A DNA stretch of 64,000 bases, from positions 2,806,633-2,870,632 of the forward strand of contig NZ_KB907784.1 in the NCBI RefSeq assembly GCF_000382185.1. The letters run 5' to 3'. Shown here piece after piece: positions 29,385 to 41,924 of this stretch. The stretch comes from Bordetella sp. FB-8 (lineage in GTDB: Bacteria; Pseudomonadota; Gammaproteobacteria; Burkholderiales; Burkholderiaceae_B). The position numbers were made by a program, and so were the translations under genes. Every line of letters starts with the position of its first letter. Positions within the stretch are counted from its first letter, which is position 1. Below the pieces are notes generated by a model. It saw only the letters and a program-made list of their open reading frames with translations, had not been told where the DNA came from and ran no database searches.

Positions 29385-31034
29385 ATGAGCAATACTGTGG
29401 AAATCAAGGTTCCCGATATCGGCGACTTCAAGGAGGTCGAGGTCATCGAAGTGCTGGTCAAGGTCGGCGAGACGATCAAGGCCGAGCAAAGCCTGATCAC
29501 GGTCGAGTCCGACAAGGCCTCGATGGAGATTCCGGCCTCGCAGGGCGGCGTAGTCAAGTCCATTTCGGTCAAGGTGGGCGACAAGGTGGCCGAAGGCAGC
29601 GTGGTCCTGGCGGTCGAAGACTCCGGGGCTGCCCCGGCTCCGGCGCCTGCCGCGGCGGCTCCCTCTGCGCCGGCTCCCGTCGCGCCAGCTCCCGCCGCTG
29701 CGCCAGCTCCCGCCGCCCCGGTCTCCGGTGGCGGCTCGGTCGATCTGGTCGTGCCCGACATCGGCGACTTCAAGGAAGTCGAAATCATTGAGGTGATGGT
29801 CGCCGTGGGCGATACCGTCAAGGCCGAGCAAAGCCTGATCACGGTCGAATCCGACAAGGCCTCGATGGAGATTCCCGCCTCGCAGGCCGGCGTCATCACG
29901 GCGCTCAAGGTCAAGGTGGGCGACAAGGTGTCCAAGGGCTCTTTGCTGGCTGTGGTGCAAGCTGCCGGCGCCGCGCCGGCGCCTGCTGCTGCCTCCTCCG
30001 CTGCCGCACCGGCTGCGGCCGCTTTTACGCCGGTGGCCGTGGATGCTGCGGCTCCCGCACCCAAGGCGACTCCCGCTTCCCCCGTGGTGGAAGATCCGGG
30101 CCTGGCTCCCGGCAAGCTGCCGCATGCCTCGCCTTCGGTGCGCAAGTTCGCGCGCGAGCTGGGGGTGAACCTGAGCCGCGTCGGGGGCACCGGCCCCAAG
30201 GGTCGCATCCTGTTCGACGACGTGCGCAATTTTGTCAAGCAGGCCCTGGCGGGCGGCTCGGGGTCGGCCGCGGCCTCGTCTGGCTCGGCCGACGGCGCCG
30301 CGCTGGGTCTGCTGCCTTGGCCCAAGGTCGACTTCGCCAAGTTCGGGCCGATCGATCCCAAGCCGCTGTCGCGCATCAAGAAGATATCGGGCGCCAACCT
30401 GCACCGCAACTGGGTCATGATCCCGCACGTCACCAACAACGACGAAGCGGACATCACCGACCTGGAAGCCCTGCGCGTCACGCTCAACAAGGAGCACGAG
30501 AAGGCGGGTGTCAAGTTCACCATGCTTGCCTTCGTCATCAAGGCCGTGGTCGCTGCCCTGAAGAAATTCCCCGAGTTCAACGCATCGCTCGACGGCGATA
30601 ACCTGGTTCTGAAGCAGTACTACCACATCGGCTTCGCGGCCGATACGCCCAACGGGCTGATGGTGCCGGTACTGAAGGACGCCGACAAGAAGGGCATCAT
30701 CGACATCGCCAAGGAAATGGGCGAGCTGGCCAAGAAGGCCCGCGACGGCAAGCTCTCGCCTGCCGAAATGCAGGGCGGTTGCTTTTCGATCTCGTCCTTG
30801 GGCGGCATCGGCGGCACGCATTTCACGCCCATCATCAACGCGCCCGAAGTGGCCATCCTGGGGCTGTCGCGCTCGTTCCAGAAGCCCGTGTGGGACGGCA
30901 AGCAATTCGTGCCGCGCCTGACCATGCCGATGTCGCTGTCGTATGACCACCGCGTCATCGACGGTGCCGCGGCCGCGCGCTTTAATGCCTACCTGGCCTC
31001 GCTGCTGGCCGATTTCCGCCGCGTCGCGCTGTAA
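29385..31034 (+). CDS. aceF: Dihydrolipoamide acetyltransferase AceF (PDH E2)
   Basis: E2 core of pyruvate dehydrogenase, 549 aa. It has two lipoyl domains (about 1-75 and 121-196), each with the modified lysine in [11 protein letters not shown], joined by long Ala/Pro linkers. A peripheral-subunit-binding domain follows ([19 protein letters not shown], about 246-283). The catalytic domain ends in [18 protein letters not shown] with the active histidine. Nearly the whole first lipoyl domain (29401-29601) is identical at DNA level to the start of lpdA downstream, with two silent differences. Confidence 0.96.
29401..29601 (+). repeat. Near-identical lipoyl-domain DNA, copy 1 (aceF)
   Basis: These 201 bases align to 31139-31339 in lpdA with only two differences, at 29435 (GAG/GAA) and near 29552 (GTA/GTG). 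Both are silent. The second lipoyl domain of the same gene is clearly more diverged from either. Confidence 0.9.
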
Positions 31035-34727: not shown

Positions 34728-35258
34728 ATGACCATGCCGTTTTTGCATAGACATCGAAGTCGCCTTGCCGGGTTGGGTTTGCGCGTATTGATCGGCACTT
34801 CCCTGGCGCTGGCGGTCCAGTGCGCTAACGCTTATTCCGGCGACGCGCGGCAATGCCGGGCGTCCGGCGGTACGCTGCGCGATGGCCAGGTGATAGCTCA
34901 ACCCAGATTCAGCCATGGCAGGTACCGCAAGGGCATCGAGCTGTCGCACACGCATTTGAAAATTCGGGGCCAGGACGGCCGCGTGTACAAGGTGGCGATC
35001 GACAATGTTTTCGCATCGGGCTACCGGCCGGGCATGAAAACCGTGCCCGCGCCGCTCAATGCCATCGCGGTAGGCGCTAAAGTCCAGGCTTGCGGCATCC
35101 CCTTTCGCGGCGGCATCCACTGGGTCCACGACAACTGCGGCGACACGCCCACCCGCTCGGACCCGAACGGCTGGATCAAGTTGGTCCAGGCCGACGGCCG
35201 TGCCGGCCCGAATCTTGAGGCCAGCCGAACCTACTGCTATCTCTGGCCACGCCATTGA
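34728..35258 (+). CDS. Secreted protein of unknown function (DUF3465-like)
   Basis: Predicted exported protein of 176 aa with a cleavable signal ending near ANA-YSG. The mature part has several cysteines. A motif near the middle-to-end ([10 protein letters not shown] followed by PNGWIKL) recalls the IHWTHHDP...DGWI pattern of DUF3465 proteins, whose function is unknown. That resemblance is from memory and short. It follows the murI homologue by 34 bases and precedes kynU by five bases, suggesting one transcript. Confidence 0.6.
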
Positions 35259-35263
35259 AAGCG

Positions 35264-36514
35264 ATGCAAACCCGCGAGTCCTGCCTGCAAGCCGATGGGC
35301 AAGATCCCCTGGCGCGGCTCAAATCGCATTTCGCGTTGCCGCCGGGCGTGATCTATTTGGATGGCAACTCGCTGGGCGCGATGCCCAGAAGCGCCCATGC
35401 CCGAAGCGCCCGGGTCATCGAGCAGGAGTGGGGCGTGGGCCTGATACGCAGCTGGAACAGCGCCGACTGGTTCGAGCTGCCTTCCCGCCTGGGCAACAAG
35501 CTGGGCCGCCTGATCGGCGCGGGCGACGACGAAGTGGTCGTCACCGACACGACCTCGCTCAATATCTTCAAGTCGCTGGCGGCCGCCTTGCGGATCCAGC
35601 GCCAAGCCCATCCCGCGCGCCGCGTGATCGTCTCCGAGCGCGACAATTTCCCGACCGATCTCTACATGATCCAGGGCATGATCGATCTGCTGCAGCAAGG
35701 CTATACGCTGCGGCTGATCGACGCGCCAGACGGGCTGGAGCAGGCGATCGACGAGGACGTCGCCGTGCTGCTGCTGTCCCACGTCAATTACCGCACCGGC
35801 TATATGCACGACATGGCGGTGACCACCGCGATGGCTCACCGGTGCGACGTGCTGACGATATGGGATCTGGCGCACTCGGCCGGCGCGGTGCCGGTCGATC
35901 TTGCCCGCGCGCAGGCCGATTTCGCCGTGGGTTGCACCTATAAATACCTGAATGGCGGCCCTGGCGCGCCCGCCTTTATATGGGTTGCCGCGCGGCACCG
36001 GGATCGATTCTGGCAGCCCCTGTCGGGCTGGTGGGGGCACAGCCACCCCTTTGACATGGCCGCCGACTACCAGCCAGCCGACGGCATCCGCCGCTATCTC
36101 TGCGGCACCCAGCCTGTCGTTTCGATGGCGCTGGTCGAGTGCGGCCTGGATATCGCGCTTGAAGCCGACATGTCCCAGGTGCGTGAAAAGTCGCTGGCGC
36201 TGACAGACCTGTTCATCTCGCTGGTGCAGGCGCGTTGCCACGGCCATCCGCTCATCCTGATCACGCCCCGCGATCACGCCATCCGCGGCAGCCATGTCAG
36301 CTTGCGCCATCCGCAAGGCTTTGCCGTGATGCAGGCCCTGATCGCGCGCGGGGTGATCGGCGACTACCGCGAACCGGGTGTGCTGCGTTTCGGGGTCACG
36401 CCTCTCTACCTGGGCTATGCCGATATATGGGATGCCGTCGAAATCCTGAAAGACATACTCGATACCGGCAGCTGGGACCGGCCTGCCTTTCATCGACGCG
36501 CTCGGGTAACGTAG
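35264..36514 (+). CDS. kynU: Kynureninase
   Basis: PLP enzyme of about 416 aa cleaving kynurenine to anthranilate and alanine in tryptophan breakdown. Family features: [13 protein letters not shown] at the start, [14 protein letters not shown] with the PLP-pairing aspartate, the PLP lysine in [12 protein letters not shown] (around residue 227), and LRFGVTPLY near the end. An in-frame TTG at 35255 overlaps the previous stop, but the ATG at 35264 is preferred. The usual partners kynA (tryptophan dioxygenase) and kynB (formamidase) are not in the window. Confidence 0.93.
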
Positions 36515-36562
36515 ATCGCCGTATTCTGTGTCGTGAACGAAGCCAAAATTGGCAGCCGCATC

Positions 36563-37102
36563 ATGTTTAAAAGAATCGCATGGACTTTAGGTTTGTTAGC
36601 GGTACTGAGCCTGTGCCGCGGCGCCGCAGCGGCTGACGCGGCCCCTGCGGACCAGGCCCCCGATCCCGCTGTCGCCCAGCAGGGCGGCGCACTCCTGGAC
36701 CGCATGATGCCCTCGAGCTTTAACGCCCTGTGGTTGGACAACACCGACGGGGTCGCCGCGCTGCATGCCTGCGAGGCCTACGTCTCGCCCTCGGCGTTGC
36801 AGGCATGGCCCGGCCTGGTCGATTTTCCCTACGCCACCCAGCCTGGCGCGATCCTGGCCTACTTGCCCTACGACACGCCCTATGGGCAGGACGTCTTCCA
36901 GGCGGTGCGGCAGGGCGACGGAAAATGGAAAGTGACCAAGGCCCAGGGCGCCATCGCAACGGCCAGCCCGTCGCCGGCCGGTATGCAGGCATTGATCGAA
37001 TCCTGCCTGGCGCATTTCGGGGCCATTTCCCCGAACTTGGTGTATCCCACCGTTTATACGCTGGCGATATGGCCGCCGCGCGTGACGCGGGCGGCGCAAT
37101 GA
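36563..37102 (+). CDS. Secreted protein of unknown function
   Basis: Predicted exported protein of 179 aa with a clear signal peptide (MFKRIAWTLGLLAVLSLCRG, cleavage near AAA-ADA). The mature part contains two cysteines and proline/aromatic-rich segments, but no domain I recognise. A GTG at 36533 is in frame; the ATG at 36563 directly precedes the signal. It lies after kynU on the same strand and ends about 75 bases from the convergent HD-GYP gene. Confidence 0.65.
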   Translation: MFKRIAWTLGLLAVLSLCRGAAAADAAPADQAPDPAVAQQGGALLDRMMPSSFNALWLDNTDGVAALHACEAYVSPSALQAWPGLVDFPYATQPGAILAYLPYDTPYGQDVFQAVRQGDGKWKVTKAQGAIATASPSPAGMQALIESCLAHFGAISPNLVYPTVYTLAIWPPRVTRAAQ

Positions 37103-37177: not shown

Positions 37178-38035
37178 TCAGGCCGGCCTTGTTCCCAGGA
37201 CGGCGTCGATGTCCGGCTCGTCGATCTGCTCCGGTTCCATGAACTGCCGCGCATACTCGCGCCAGATGCCCTCGGTCAGGAAGAGATCCAGCAGATCGGG
37301 ATCGAGGTGCCTGTCGCGCTTCATCGATTCCATGATGTGCACCGCCTCGCTTAGCCTCTTGGCCTTCTTGTAGGGCCGGTCGCCCGCGGTCAGCGCCTCG
37401 AAGACATCGGCGATGGCCATGGCGCGCGCCACCACGCTCATATCGTCGCGCCGCAGTCCCTTGGGATATCCCGTGCCGTCCATTTTCTCGTGATGCCCGC
37501 CGGCGAACTCGGGAACCTGCCGCAAGGCGCCTGTCAGCGGCAGGTCGCGCAGCATGAGAATGGTGTGGTTGATGTGCTTGTTGATCTCGTACCGTTCCTC
37601 GTCCGTCAGCGTGCCCCGGCGGATGCGGAGGTTGTGGCGCTCGCCCAGGTTCATGCGGTATTGCGGCGGTTTCATGTTGAATCCTGCCTGGCTTTCCTGT
37701 GTGTTCAGGTAACTGGCATGGTGTTCGATGAGATGGTCGGCGCGGTCTTCCAGCAGTTTTTCCTCGGTTGGCAGCGCCGGAGCGGGCGTGCGGCGCTTGC
37801 GCCGATTTTCTTCGCGCGAAATTCCGATGCGGTCATCGAGCGTGCGTATCCAGGTTCGCTCGCCTATGGCGTGCAGGCGCTCGATATCCTGGGAGGCCAT
37901 CTCTTCGCCGCCTTCATTGCAACGGGCCACGAATGCAAAATCGGCATCCAGCGCGGCCAGCTCCGCGTCGCGGATGGCGGCCAGCGCCTGCGGCTGTGCG
38001 CCTGCGGCTGTGCGCCTGCGGCCACGCCGCGCCAA
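37178..38035 (-). pseudogene. HD-GYP phosphodiesterase, 3' part, out of frame with its 5' part
   Basis: Encodes the second half of an HD-GYP c-di-GMP phosphodiesterase: helix INKHINHTILMLRDLPL, then the GYP motif HHEKMDGTGYPKGL and the tail ADVFEALTAGDRPYKKAK. It has no natural start; the first possible codon is TTG inside a tandem repeat region. It continues the gene at 37864-40146 in a different frame. The frames switch within the 14-bp repeat at 37984-38022. Removing one 14-base unit would give one ORF of 984 codons across 37178-40146. As sequenced, the catalytic domain is split and should be inactive. Confidence 0.8.
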
Positions 38036-40146
38036 TAAGCCACCCAGGCGCCGGACTTGAGCAATTCGAACCGCATGCGGATTTCGTGCAGCCGGTTATA
38101 GAGGCTTTCGAGCTTGGTGGCCTTGTCGACGATGTATTCGGGGGTGGTCAGTTTGCCGCAGTCATGCAGCCAGCTCGCAACCTTGACCGCCTCCCAGTCG
38201 TCCGGCGTGAGCGTGAAATCCGCGAAAGGGCCGCTGCGCGACCGGCTTGCGGCCCGCACCAGCGACATTGCCAGCATGGGCACACGTTGGCAATGTCCGC
38301 CGGTATAGGGGGACTTGGCGTCGATGGAATTGGCGATCATGCGCACCACGGCATCGAGCAGCGACTTGCGCGCCTTGAGCAGCAGGGTCATCTCGATGGT
38401 CATCGCCGCCGTCGCCGACAGGACCTGGATCAGGTCGAGGCTGGCATCCGACGCCTGCATGCCGGCTTTGCCGCGCGCTGCCAGCAGCAATCCGCCCACC
38501 ACGTCGCCGGCCCGGTTGAGCAGGGGAACGACCGAGAACCGGAATACCTGGTCGGCCGGCAGCGGCGTCGCCTCGACCAATCCGGCCAGGAACGGCGGCA
38601 ATGGAGTTCTGGCATGGTCGAAATGCGCAACCGTCTTGCCTTGAATGGCCGCAAGCACTTGTGCGTCGACGTCGAGCCGGTCCACCGTCCGGGGTTCCGC
38701 GTCTTCGGCCGATGTGTCGCGATCGATGACCGACAGTTTTTCGCCTTCGTCTTCGCTCATCAACAGAAGGCCGCCCTCCGCTTCGGCGATATTGACGGCC
38801 TCGCGCAGCAGCCGAACCATCAGTTTTGTGGGGTCGCGCTCGGCCGAAAGTGCCTGGCCGACTTCGGTGAAGCGCTGGATGGTCAGTCCGGCCTGGCGCA
38901 TGGACTGCGACAAGGTCCGGATTTCCCGAACGGACGAATCGACTTGGGCGAATCCGGGTTCGAACTGGAAACGCTGGATGCGTTCTGCGTCCTGGGCCAG
39001 TTGCGTCAGGGGCCGGCTGACCGCCCGGGCCACGACCTGGACCACGGCCATGGCGGCAAGCGCCATCGCCACGCCCAGCCAGAGCAGCGTCGAGGTCAGC
39101 CTGCGGGCGCCTGCCAGCATTTCGTTGTCCGGCGTGGCCACGGCCATGCGAAAAGTCCAGGGGCCCGAATGCAGCGGCACCGTGCGCATCACCCAGGTGA
39201 CATTGCTGTTGTTTACCGTGCGGGTCGTCGCCTGTCCGCCGTCCGAGTCCGATGCCACCCGCAGCAGGTGCGTCGCCATGGACGAGGCCGGCCATGGCGA
39301 TCCGGCGTTCGGCGTGTCCGGTCCTATCGGCACGCTGCTGGCGACGACCTCGTTTTGGGCATTGACGATCATCAGTATCGACGACTTGGTGCTTTTCATC
39401 TGTCTGAGCGCCTGCGACAAATCGGCCAGGCCCAGATCCACGCCCACCACGCCATGGCCCGACGCCAGGCGCCGGGCCATGGTGATACCGCGCTCCTGCG
39501 TCAGAAAAAACCAGTAGGGATTCGTAATGACGGCGTTTTCGCTGCCGATTCCCATGCGATACCAGTTGCGTGTGCGCGGATCATAGGGCGGGTCGGCCGG
39601 CGCAAGCGCGGCGCCCACGGGCTGCAGCGCGTCGTCCAGAAACGTAAGCGCCATCGTCGCGGTCCCGGCCGCAGCAGCCCCGGTTCCGGCGCGTACGGTT
39701 TCCAGGTAATAGCTCGCCGCATCGGGCGCCTTGAGCTGTTCCCGGGCGACTGGCGAAGTGAGCCGGCGCAGCAGTACGAAGCTGCCGTCCTCGTAACCCA
39801 CATAGAGGGCCGACACCATGGGAGAGGCCTGCAGCGAGAGGCTCATGCGGCGGATAAATGCATGCCGGGATGCGCTTGCGAAATCGTTGGCCTGGGGGTT
39901 GGTCGCATAAAGGCTCAGCAGCCCGTCGACCTTGCTGACATTGTTGTCAATCTGGTTGCGGCTTTCGGTCGCGATATGGTCGAACAGCGTGCGTGACGCA
40001 TCCTGGACGATGCCGATTGCCTGGTGGTTGACGTAGAAGACGATGCCCAGCATGGCGGCCAGCACCGTCAAGCCGAACGCCAAGGTCAGATGTGCCGCCA
40101 AGCTCTCGGGCCTGCACATCGAAGCAAGCTTCTTGATCATCGCCAT
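37864..40146 (-). CDS. HD-GYP phosphodiesterase, 5' part (Cache-HAMP-GAF-HD), truncated by frameshift
   Basis: N-terminal 760 codons of a membrane c-di-GMP phosphodiesterase. It has a membrane helix (about 18-40), a periplasmic dCache domain (DPRTRNWYRMG), a second helix (about 330-355), HAMP, a GAF domain (about 410-570), and the first half of HD-GYP with the HD pair in VASWLHDCGKLTTPEYI. After RFELLKSGAWVAYWRGVAAGAQPQ-like residues it enters the 14-bp repeat and leaves the true frame; the last ~55 residues are frameshift noise. It follows the GGDEF gene by 52 bases on the same strand, probably as one operon. Confidence 0.82.
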   Translation of the reverse strand: MAMIKKLASMCRPESLAAHLTLAFGLTVLAAMLGIVFYVNHQAIGIVQDASRTLFDHIATESRNQIDNNVSKVDGLLSLYATNPQANDFASASRHAFIRRMSLSLQASPMVSALYVGYEDGSFVLLRRLTSPVAREQLKAPDAASYYLETVRAGTGAAAAGTATMALTFLDDALQPVGAALAPADPPYDPRTRNWYRMGIGSENAVITNPYWFFLTQERGITMARRLASGHGVVGVDLGLADLSQALRQMKSTKSSILMIVNAQNEVVASSVPIGPDTPNAGSPWPASSMATHLLRVASDSDGGQATTRTVNNSNVTWVMRTVPLHSGPWTFRMAVATPDNEMLAGARRLTSTLLWLGVAMALAAMAVVQVVARAVSRPLTQLAQDAERIQRFQFEPGFAQVDSSVREIRTLSQSMRQAGLTIQRFTEVGQALSAERDPTKLMVRLLREAVNIAEAEGGLLLMSEDEGEKLSVIDRDTSAEDAEPRTVDRLDVDAQVLAAIQGKTVAHFDHARTPLPPFLAGLVEATPLPADQVFRFSVVPLLNRAGDVVGGLLLAARGKAGMQASDASLDLIQVLSATAAMTIEMTLLLKARKSLLDAVVRMIANSIDAKSPYTGGHCQRVPMLAMSLVRAASRSRSGPFADFTLTPDDWEAVKVASWLHDCGKLTTPEYIVDKATKLESLYNRLHEIRMRFELLKSGAWVAYWRGVAAGAQPQAHSRRRWPPSATRSWPRWMPILHSWPVAMKAAKRWPPRISSACTP
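37984..38022. repeat. 14-bp tandem repeat at the HD-GYP frameshift (about 2.8 units)
   Basis: Unit GCGCCTGCGGCTGT (plus strand), two full copies and 11 bases of a third. The unit is not a multiple of three, so each gain or loss shifts the frame of the gene that crosses it. By arithmetic the ORF is continuous with one unit fewer or two units more than seen here. Confidence 0.9.
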
Positions 40147-40198: not shown

Positions 40199-41731
40199 TC
40201 AGAACTGCGCGGCCAGATCCGCTGCGCTACATACGCGATTACGGCCGTCCTTCTTTGCTTGGTAAAGCGCCTCGTCCGCCTGCGTCAGCAGCCGATCGGG
40301 GTCGTCGGTTTCTTGCACGGCCTGGAAGGCGCCGACTCCGGCGCTGAGTGTAACGATGCCGGCAGGACTGCCTGTGTGCGGTATGCCCAGCGACTGCACC
40401 GCGGCGAGGATGCGCTCGGCCACCATCACGGCACCGCCCGTGTCGGCGCCGGGAAGCAGCACCACGAATTCTTCCCCGCCATAGCGGGCGAGTATATCGC
40501 CAGGCCGCTTTGCCGCAACCGAGCCGATTGCGCGCGCGACGCGCTTGAGGCACTCGTCTCCGGCCTGGTGGCCATACCGGTCGTTGTATTGTTTGAAGAA
40601 ATCGATGTCGAACATGATGGTCGCCAGCGGATAGGCGTGACGTTTCGCCAGGCTGAATTTCTCGGCAAGGGCGATATCGAAATACCGGCGGTTCGCGACG
40701 CCGGTCAGGCCGTCGTGCATTGCCATGTTTTGCAGAGCCTGATTGGCCTGGAACAATTCGTTTTCGACATGGTCGCGCAGCGCGATCTGCTGCATCAGCC
40801 GTACGCTGAACCAGCTGATCAGCACGGCAACGGCGATGCAGGCGATCGCGTGCGCAATCGTATCGCGCCACCAGGACAGGTACGCCTCATGCACCGACAT
40901 TCCAACTAGGACAAATACCGGGTAGTGATCGAGCTTGCGGAAGCTGAAATGCCGGACGGTTCCGTCCATCGGTGAGCTTATCGTGCGGGATCCCTGATCG
41001 CCTTCCTGCAGGACAGCCTGAAACAGGCTCGACTGGGAGAAATTCCTGCCTAAGGCGTCGTCCGTTGTCGGCCAGTGCATCAACAATGTTCCGTCCTCGA
41101 GAATGATGTCGACGACGCTGTCGGCTCCGAGATTCATCCGGCTGTAGAACTCCGCCAGGGAGTCGAAATTTATATTGACTGCCGCAACGCCGGCGAAGCT
41201 GCCGTCCGGATGGTCGGTGCGTATCGTCAGGGGCAGGACCCAGCGGTGCGATATGCGGCTGATCAACGGAGGGTTGATGCGGATGCGCTGGCCGGCATGC
41301 GTACGGTGATAGACGAAGTATCCCCGATCGGCGACATTTATCCCGGCAGGCGAGGAGTTGCCGGACGTCGCCACCAGATTGCCCTGTTCATCGAAAAGAA
41401 TCAGGTTGTCCAGTTGCGGCAGATCGGCTTCTGCAAGACGCATCTCACCGGTGATTTCCGCTATCGACGCGGCGTCCATGGCATGACGAGCAGTCTGACT
41501 GCGTAGTGTCTGCAATAGCATGCCGGCCACTTGCATCGTGTCCTGCAATTGCTGCGCAACGATATCCGCCGCGCTGCGGGTGGTCTGCGCCAGTGTCTGA
41601 TTCTGGTGCTTGTAGGCATTCCAGCTGTACCACGCACTCAGGCCTATCAAGGCGGCACATATCGGAAAGACGGGGAGAACGATACGCCAGTTGAGCGTTA
41701 GTCTCGATAGGTCAGCCGGTTTTTTTAGCAT
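40199..41731 (-). CDS. Membrane diguanylate cyclase (Cache-GGDEF)
   Basis: Predicted c-di-GMP synthase of 510 aa. It has a membrane helix (about 15-38), a periplasmic Cache-type sensor (about 45-280, including GYFVYHRTHAGQRIRINPPL), a second helix (about 285-310) and a C-terminal GGDEF domain. The active site is GGEEF (ARYGGEEFVVLLPG), and the DIDFFKQYNDRYGHQAGD substrate/metal region is intact. The ATG at 41731 has a good ribosome binding site (GGGAGG); the longer frame to 41824 lacks one. It is upstream of the HD-GYP gene, so synthesis and breakdown enzymes are made together. Confidence 0.9.
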   Translation of the reverse strand: MLKKPADLSRLTLNWRIVLPVFPICAALIGLSAWYSWNAYKHQNQTLAQTTRSAADIVAQQLQDTMQVAGMLLQTLRSQTARHAMDAASIAEITGEMRLAEADLPQLDNLILFDEQGNLVATSGNSSPAGINVADRGYFVYHRTHAGQRIRINPPLISRISHRWVLPLTIRTDHPDGSFAGVAAVNINFDSLAEFYSRMNLGADSVVDIILEDGTLLMHWPTTDDALGRNFSQSSLFQAVLQEGDQGSRTISSPMDGTVRHFSFRKLDHYPVFVLVGMSVHEAYLSWWRDTIAHAIACIAVAVLISWFSVRLMQQIALRDHVENELFQANQALQNMAMHDGLTGVANRRYFDIALAEKFSLAKRHAYPLATIMFDIDFFKQYNDRYGHQAGDECLKRVARAIGSVAAKRPGDILARYGGEEFVVLLPGADTGGAVMVAERILAAVQSLGIPHTGSPAGIVTLSAGVGAFQAVQETDDPDRLLTQADEALYQAKKDGRNRVCSAADLAAQF

Positions 41732-41924
41732 CACCTTATCGTTCCTCCCGAGTGAAGATTTTTCTCGACTGTGAGGCATAGGTGGCAGCCGCATTTCTCG
41801 CTCAATGGTCTTCCATGTGCCCATCCATTGTCAATGTTCGCCGGCATCGCCGCAGTACCGGCAGCCCCAAGGCCCGGCCCGATGTGATGGGGAAGGGGAT
41901 GAAAGCTTATTCGAGAGAAATCGA

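What the first reader, a model, noticed from the sequence alone, without database searches (positions are those of the whole stretch)
37178..40146. HD-GYP phosphodiesterase gene split exactly at a 14-bp tandem repeat: candidate phase-variable c-di-GMP switch
The gene's two halves are both well conserved (HD motif in one frame, GYP motif in the other). The frame change falls inside 2.8 copies of GCGCCTGCGGCTGT at 37984-38022. The shift needed (2 mod 3) equals loss of one 14-base unit: 2969 minus 14 is divisible by three, giving 984 codons. Gain of two units would also restore it. Slipped-strand repair at such a repeat would switch the enzyme on and off. I know of no HD-GYP gene described as switching this way.
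Basis: partly seen in the sequence, partly recalled or inferred. Interest (0 to 1): 0.82.

Follow-up and report, generated by a model that had tools for sequence, protein, structure and literature searches.

The report
Signalling enzyme gene broken at repeat
A Bordetella gene for an enzyme predicted to destroy the signal molecule c-di-GMP is thrown out of frame by a short DNA repeat of a kind that can slip back, and a related gene in another Bordetella is broken at a different repeat; whether either is a true on/off switch is not shown.

Summary
On the minus strand, 40146..37178, a dCache-HD-GYP gene is split into two overlapping frames, and the frame changes inside a perfect 2.8-copy array of a 14-bp unit (37984-38022) that is beyond chance and whose double unit occurs once in the genome. 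The nearest relative found (about 90% identity, same neighbours) is one open frame of 985 aa, 14 bases shorter here and without a perfect array. dN/dS against it is alike in both halves (0.154, 0.151), so the break looks recent.

A second congener (G006, almost certainly Bordetella pertussis) has a homologue broken at a different, 8-bp, array in the same insert of the protein. Public proteins show three length states of that array on nearly identical backgrounds, only one of them keeping the enzyme whole.

Best reading: a recent slippage-made OFF allele, potentially reversible. A selected switch is possible (about 25%) but unproven; no second strain or reads of the window's species could be examined. 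Phase-variable c-di-GMP phosphodiesterases are known by other mechanisms; my searches found no repeat-frameshift HD-GYP.

The parts
37864..40146 (-). ORF 1, 760 aa: 5' part of the split gene (dCache-like sensor region and HD half with HDCGK), ending out of frame
   Evidence: dCache_1 residues 180-331 at 34.3 bits, below Pfam's cut-off of 45; aligned open frame in L001
37178..38035 (-). ORF 2, 285 aa: 3' part of the split gene (GYP half); the protein database holds a 240-aa prediction of it (P0021)
   Evidence: HD_5, E 3.4e-40; P0021
37984..38022 (.). Perfect tandem array, 14-bp unit, 2.8 copies; place of the frame change
   Evidence: chance control; genome uniqueness; one unit longer than the homologous stretch of L001
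40199..41824 (-). Adjacent diguanylate cyclase gene (dCache + GGDEF), 52 bp upstream of the split gene, same strand; intact
   Evidence: the end of a GGDEF gene also lies in front of the intact gene in L001

Best explanation
The locus is a predicted c-di-GMP phosphodiesterase of dCache-HD-GYP type behind a diguanylate cyclase gene, in an OFF allele. A direct repeat that encodes the turn of a helical hairpin in the insert between the HD and GYP halves gained one 14-bp copy, most likely by slipped-strand replication. That shifts the frame and parts the metal ligands of the HD half from those of the GYP half, so the enzyme should be inactive and the neighbouring cyclase unopposed by it. The array can in principle slip back, so the allele is potentially reversible, but it most likely arose recently in this lineage and is not a shown or selected switch. 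Shown: split, array, shorter intact relative, no decay. Inferred: slippage, loss of activity, reversibility, effect on c-di-GMP.
For: Array at the break, beyond chance and its double unit unique in the genome. Intact 985-aa relative with the same neighbours and no perfect array. 17 of 20 homologous proteins found with the 5' half carry HD_5; the three without are the window's own P0001, P0017 (600 aa, named partial) and the distant P0020. dN/dS 0.154 (708 codons) and 0.151 (274 codons). H619, H662, D663, K666 lie in ORF 1 and H854, H881, H882, G889, P891, D910 in ORF 2 (L001 numbering), all invariant in 32 aligned sequences. The repeat maps to the turn between helices 676-710 and 715-738 of the L001 model, local pLDDT about 96. 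The G006 homologue is broken at another short array with several length states in public proteins.
Against: Polarised substitutions lean, without significance, towards relaxation of the 3' half: window-only against L001-only 12:6 in 3' and 22:27 in 5' with outgroup P0003 (p 0.17), 8:5 and 8:18 with P0003+P0004 (p 0.09), 2:2 and 3:9 with five outgroups (p 0.55). Only one assembly of this species was available, so a sequencing error is not excluded. Activity of the intact enzyme is not demonstrated.
Confidence: 0.6

Rival explanations
1. A true contingency locus: array length varies reversibly among cells and selection maintains on/off switching of the phosphodiesterase.
For: Perfect array with a unit that is not a multiple of three inside a constrained gene. 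Three length states of the 8-bp array in the G006 homologue on nearly identical backgrounds. Both arrays fall in loops of the same insert.
Against: No perfect array at the site in L001/G012 or G013. Only 2.8 copies. No second strain or read data of the window's species. The length states in the second case could be fixed in lineages; the organisms behind P0141 and P0142 are not named. 33 of the 35 genomes with a match at E <= 1e-40 show no split by my reading of the table.
Confidence: 0.25
2. Assembly or sequencing error: the real chromosome has another number of units and an open frame.
For: Only one assembly of the species was available; the sequencing method is unknown; all other close homologues seen are open.
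Against: A 39-bp array fits within a single short read (inference), and the genome is scored 99.09% complete in two contigs.
Confidence: 0.1
3. A working split enzyme: the two ORFs are translated separately and the HD and GYP halves assemble.
For: A 240-aa second protein is predicted in the database; both halves are constrained.
Against: The predicted start, the Met of MASQDIERL, is an ordinary in-frame codon of the intact L001 gene, so nothing points to a start evolved for this. ORF 1 ends in an out-of-frame tail. The constraint mostly reflects time before the break.
Confidence: 0.05

Closest known systems
PdeE (BB1564/BP0880) of classical Bordetella; review PMC12805831, passages seen
   Same: Cache domain plus HD-GYP domain; the B. 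pertussis variant is said to lack its C-terminal 170 residues, most of the HD-GYP domain. G006's gene, broken at an 8-bp array, is probably this gene.
   Different: The passages mention no repeat and treat it as a mutated gene. The review gives PdeE a QD-GYP motif, whereas G006's gene reads HDCGK, so the assignment is tentative. The window gene is only about 45-51% identical over its HD-GYP part and lies in other surroundings.
C. difficile pdcB/pdcC, phase-variable c-di-GMP phosphodiesterases (PMC9286219, PMC11868660; passages)
   Same: On/off variation of a c-di-GMP phosphodiesterase.
   Different: EAL-type enzymes switched by inversion of a promoter element through site-specific recombination; here an HD-GYP frame changed at a coding repeat, with switching not shown. 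PMC11868660 also tells of an E. coli phosphodiesterase switched epigenetically with a fimbrial operon.
Repeat-frame contingency genes, and frameshift phase variation of B. pertussis (listed for 1989, Stibitz et al., in PMC11868660)
   Same: Frame of a coding sequence set by small length changes at a slippery tract.
   Different: Known cases show reversibility. Here a 14-bp unit with 2.8 copies in a c-di-GMP phosphodiesterase gene, one allele seen.
HD-GYP phosphodiesterases of known structure: 4mcw (Metal dependent phosphohydrolase), 5z7c (3'3'-cGAMP-specific phosphodiesterase 3), 4r8z (Cyclic di-GMP phosphodiesterase)
   Same: Aligned H, HDxGK and HHExxDGTGYP residues (4mcw, 5z7c); 4r8z over the GYP part.
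   Different: In this family about 160 residues are inserted between the two matched stretches (query 683 to 842 with 4mcw); both arrays lie in that insert.

Membership tests
HD-GYP c-di-GMP phosphodiesterase | HD_5/HD-GYP domain match | tested here: met
   ORF 2: HD_5 138 bits, cut-off 27.2. Intact relatives carry it.
HD-GYP c-di-GMP phosphodiesterase | H, HD, K ... H, HH, GYP, D residues present | tested here: met
   Invariant or (Y890) nearly invariant in 32 aligned intact sequences; in the window they are divided between two ORFs.
HD-GYP c-di-GMP phosphodiesterase | Hydrolyses c-di-GMP | not testable with these tools
   Needs an enzyme assay.
Repeat-mediated (slipped-strand) phase-variable gene | Tandem array whose unit is not a multiple of three, inside the coding frame | tested here: met
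   14-bp unit, 2.8 perfect copies, at the frame change.
Repeat-mediated (slipped-strand) phase-variable gene | Array length varies between strains or within a culture | not testable with these tools
   One genome per species; no reads. In the homologue of G006 three length states are seen in public proteins, which is not a test of the window's array.
Repeat-mediated (slipped-strand) phase-variable gene | Array kept in orthologues as a conserved feature | tested here: not met
   No perfect array at the site in L001/G012 or G013.
Repeat-mediated (slipped-strand) phase-variable gene | Reversible change of phenotype | not testable with these tools
   Needs cultures.
Decayed pseudogene | Extra stops or relaxed constraint beyond the first lesion | tested here: not met
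   No further stop in the aligned 3' part; dN/dS 0.151 against 0.154. A weak, non-significant lean to relaxation.

The most novel reading that the evidence does not exclude
The dCache-HD-GYP phosphodiesterases of Bordetella are contingency genes: slippery repeats of unrelated unit length (14 bp here, 8 bp in the pertussis-type congener) arise repeatedly in loops of the insert between the HD and GYP halves, and their length changes switch a c-di-GMP module on and off within populations.
Probability: 0.2. Interest if true: 0.75.

Novelty: new variant of a known kind. Interest (0 to 1): 0.5.

Why it matters
c-di-GMP governs the choice between motile and attached life. A phosphodiesterase that cells can lose and regain by repeat slippage would add a heritable bet-hedging layer to that choice. 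The known phase-variable c-di-GMP phosphodiesterases in the review I opened use promoter inversion or epigenetic switching; frame slippage in an HD-GYP enzyme would be another route. The second case, at a different repeat in a homologue with several length states in public data, makes the idea testable on existing reads. If both are simply dead alleles, they still show where this family breaks and that two Bordetella lineages lost it in a similar way.

Tried and rejected
Conserved switch: not supported for the window's array. Of 22 family loci given, the HDCGK pattern was found on the + strand in 12; over 240 codons from there TRF gave an array of score 30 or more in 5 (L029, L034, L036, L041, L051), and only the one in L051 (G006) goes with a frame break. 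The other 10 loci were not scored because the motif pattern missed.

Old pseudogene: not supported, with the weak contrary lean told above.

Other frame-shifting arrays: in the 464 kb sampled, one further perfect array of at least 2.5 copies has a unit that is not a multiple of three, the 11-bp array in L062; it lies between probable genes.

Separate-gene idea: the search with ORF 2 gave 2533 proteins, 120 listed; many short ones come from small contigs, so they do not tell whether similar splits occur elsewhere.

Names: the genome search gives none. I did not name the window's species; a paper search on a guessed strain name was not followed up.

Literature: HD-GYP + phase variation + tandem repeat, 2 papers with one mention each; phase variable + c-di-GMP + phosphodiesterase + frameshift + repeat, 5; HD-GYP + slipped-strand, 0; four of five terms c-di-GMP, tandem duplication, reversible, frameshift, wrinkly, 6; Bordetella + HD-GYP + c-di-GMP, 40, of which 20 listed; B. 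pertussis + phase variation + simple sequence repeats + frameshift, 12; three of four terms B. pertussis, tandem repeat, c-di-GMP, pseudogene, 63, of which 20 listed; HD-GYP + phase variable, 1; diguanylate cyclase + slipped-strand mispairing + phase variation, 3. Opened, passages only: PMC12805831, PMC11868660, PMC9286219, PMC6324874 (in the last the slippage and phase-variation terms occur only in the reference list). The rest were seen as listings. The library lacks most subscription papers, so absence here is weak.

Full report
What is there. On the minus strand the window holds a gene pair: a diguanylate cyclase gene (dCache + GGDEF, 41824..40199) and, 52 bp behind it, a large dCache-HD-GYP gene running from 40146 to 37178 in two frames: ORF 40146..37864 (760 aa) and ORF 38035..37178 (285 aa). 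The dCache match of the first ORF (34.3 bits) is below Pfam's cut-off of 45. The change of frame lies in a perfect array of 2.8 copies of a 14-bp unit at 37984-38022. The finding's coordinates, unit, copy number and arithmetic are right.

More than chance. The array scores highest of 39 tandem-repeat rows in the window, and its exact double unit occurs once in the 4.08-Mb genome. The run of positions matching 14 bases on is 25 long; 100 dinucleotide shuffles of the window gave at most 14 for any period from 7 to 30. In 20 further 20-kb stretches of the genome, 4 of 20 had runs of 25 or more with periods 7-30, all with periods divisible by three (9, 15, 18, 30). Of 46 arrays of score 50 or more in these 464 kb, 38 have a period divisible by three; some of the 8 others are second descriptions of 15-bp arrays. 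One other perfect array of at least 2.5 copies has a unit not divisible by three, the 11-bp array in L062, between probable genes.

The relatives. The nearest relative found (L001, the same contig as G012's, titled Bordetella sp. isolate clean401; 89-90% identity) is one open frame of 985 aa with the same neighbours: the end of a GGDEF gene in front, and behind it homologues of the window's ORFs 36533..37102 and 35255..36514 (the latter is probably kynureninase, a name I recall). At the homologous place it is 14 bases shorter and has no perfect repeat; G013 has none either. The peptides of P0003 and P0004 at the site have the same length as L001's. Of 20 proteins found with the 5' half, 17 carry HD_5; the three without are the window's own P0001, P0017 (600 aa, named partial) and the distant P0020. 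So the window's allele is one unit longer than the state of its intact relatives.

Age and constraint. Compared half by half with L001, dN/dS is 0.154 over 708 codons of the 5' part and 0.151 over 274 codons of the 3' part. No stop interrupts the aligned 3' part. With outgroup P0003, window-only against L001-only changes are 22:27 in the 5' part and 12:6 in the 3' part (Fisher p 0.17); with P0003 and P0004, 8:18 and 8:5 (p 0.09); with five outgroups, 3:9 and 2:2 (p 0.55). The break looks recent on this scale; a slight relaxation of the 3' half cannot be excluded.

What the break does. H619, H662, D663, K666, H854, H881, H882, G889, P891 and D910 (L001 numbering) are invariant in the 32 aligned sequences, and Y890 nearly so. 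The first four fall in ORF 1 and the rest in ORF 2, so neither product alone has the whole metal site (which residues bind metal is recalled from the family). Solved HD-GYP proteins 4mcw and 5z7c align on both sides of an insert of about 160 residues, and 4r8z over the GYP part only. In the model of L001 (mean pLDDT 78.8, pTM 0.46, local pLDDT about 96) the repeat encodes the turn between helices 676-710 and 715-738 of this insert: a place that should tolerate a change of length but not of frame. The genome has three other HD_5 loci (four in all, five matches), so the loss would not remove HD-GYP activity altogether.

A second case. In the family-wide search 35 of 268 genomes had a match at E <= 1e-40, with three candidates per genome scored. 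By my reading of that table two have the gene in two overlapping frames on one contig: the window's genome and G006, both of the genus. G013 is cut by contig ends; a short separate frame in G233 was not examined. G006's break lies about 70 residues further on, inside another array: 8-bp unit, 4.1 copies, 96% matching, 3% indels (L051 2287-2320), which maps to a loop at L001 residues 783-789. G006 is a 4.0-Mb single contig with 150 scored IS481-family matches, the list being capped, and two HD_5 loci, so almost certainly B. pertussis. Its gene is then probably PdeE/BP0880, which a 2025 review calls mutated and short of its C-terminal 170 residues (PMC12805831, passages); the passages mention no repeat. 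The review's QD-GYP motif does not fit the HDCGK seen here, so this assignment is tentative.

Length states in the second case. Of 58 public proteins found with G006's 5' ORF, 56 carry HD_5; P0142 and the 617-aa P0191 do not. P0141 (954 aa, intact) stands for 247 member sequences; P0142 (960 aa, running on in the third frame) is one sequence from 6 contigs. Before the array they differ from G006 at 2 and 1 of 742 residues; beyond it P0141 equals G006's enzyme frame over 204 residues and P0142 its other frame over 211. So three length states of one array exist on nearly the same background, and only one keeps the enzyme whole. Arrays this short should survive assembly with 31-base words (inference). 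This shows that an array in this protein family has changed length in nature. It does not show switching: the states could be fixed in lineages, and the organisms behind P0141 and P0142 are not named.

What it most likely is. A recent slippage-made OFF allele of an otherwise maintained phosphodiesterase gene (0.6). A selected, reversible switch is the main rival (0.25), then an assembly error (0.1) and a working split enzyme (0.05).

Novelty. Phase-variable c-di-GMP phosphodiesterases are known: C. difficile pdcB and pdcC by inversion, and a phosphodiesterase in an epigenetically switched E. coli fimbrial operon (PMC11868660 and PMC9286219, passages). Repeat-frame contingency genes are known, and frameshift phase variation of B. 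pertussis is listed for 1989 in PMC11868660. A repeat-frameshift HD-GYP enzyme was not found in searches, of which 37 and 43 list 20 of 40 and 20 of 63 papers. I file it as a new variant of a known kind, conditional on switching being shown.

Noticed in passing
L051 2287-2320 (G006, near C1:1595450): The homologous gene of a pertussis-type genome is out of frame at an 8-bp array; public proteins show three length states.
   Followed up: partly
L062 8231-8261 (G000:C1, near 708240): Perfect 11-bp array of 2.8 copies between two probable genes, the nearest other case of a perfect array with a unit not divisible by three in the sample; could affect a promoter.
   Followed up: no
window 29621-29716: Cluster of overlapping 15- and 18-bp repeats, of in-frame unit length; perhaps an Ala/Pro-rich linker (not checked).
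   Followed up: no
L064 16212-16739 (G000:C1, near 1116212): Array of a 216-bp unit, 2.5 copies, 90% matching, the highest-scoring array in the sample.
   Followed up: no
L067 9438-9522 and 10968-11023 (G000:C1, near 1709438): Two 15-bp arrays (5.6 copies at 94%, 3.7 copies perfect) within 1.6 kb.
   Followed up: no
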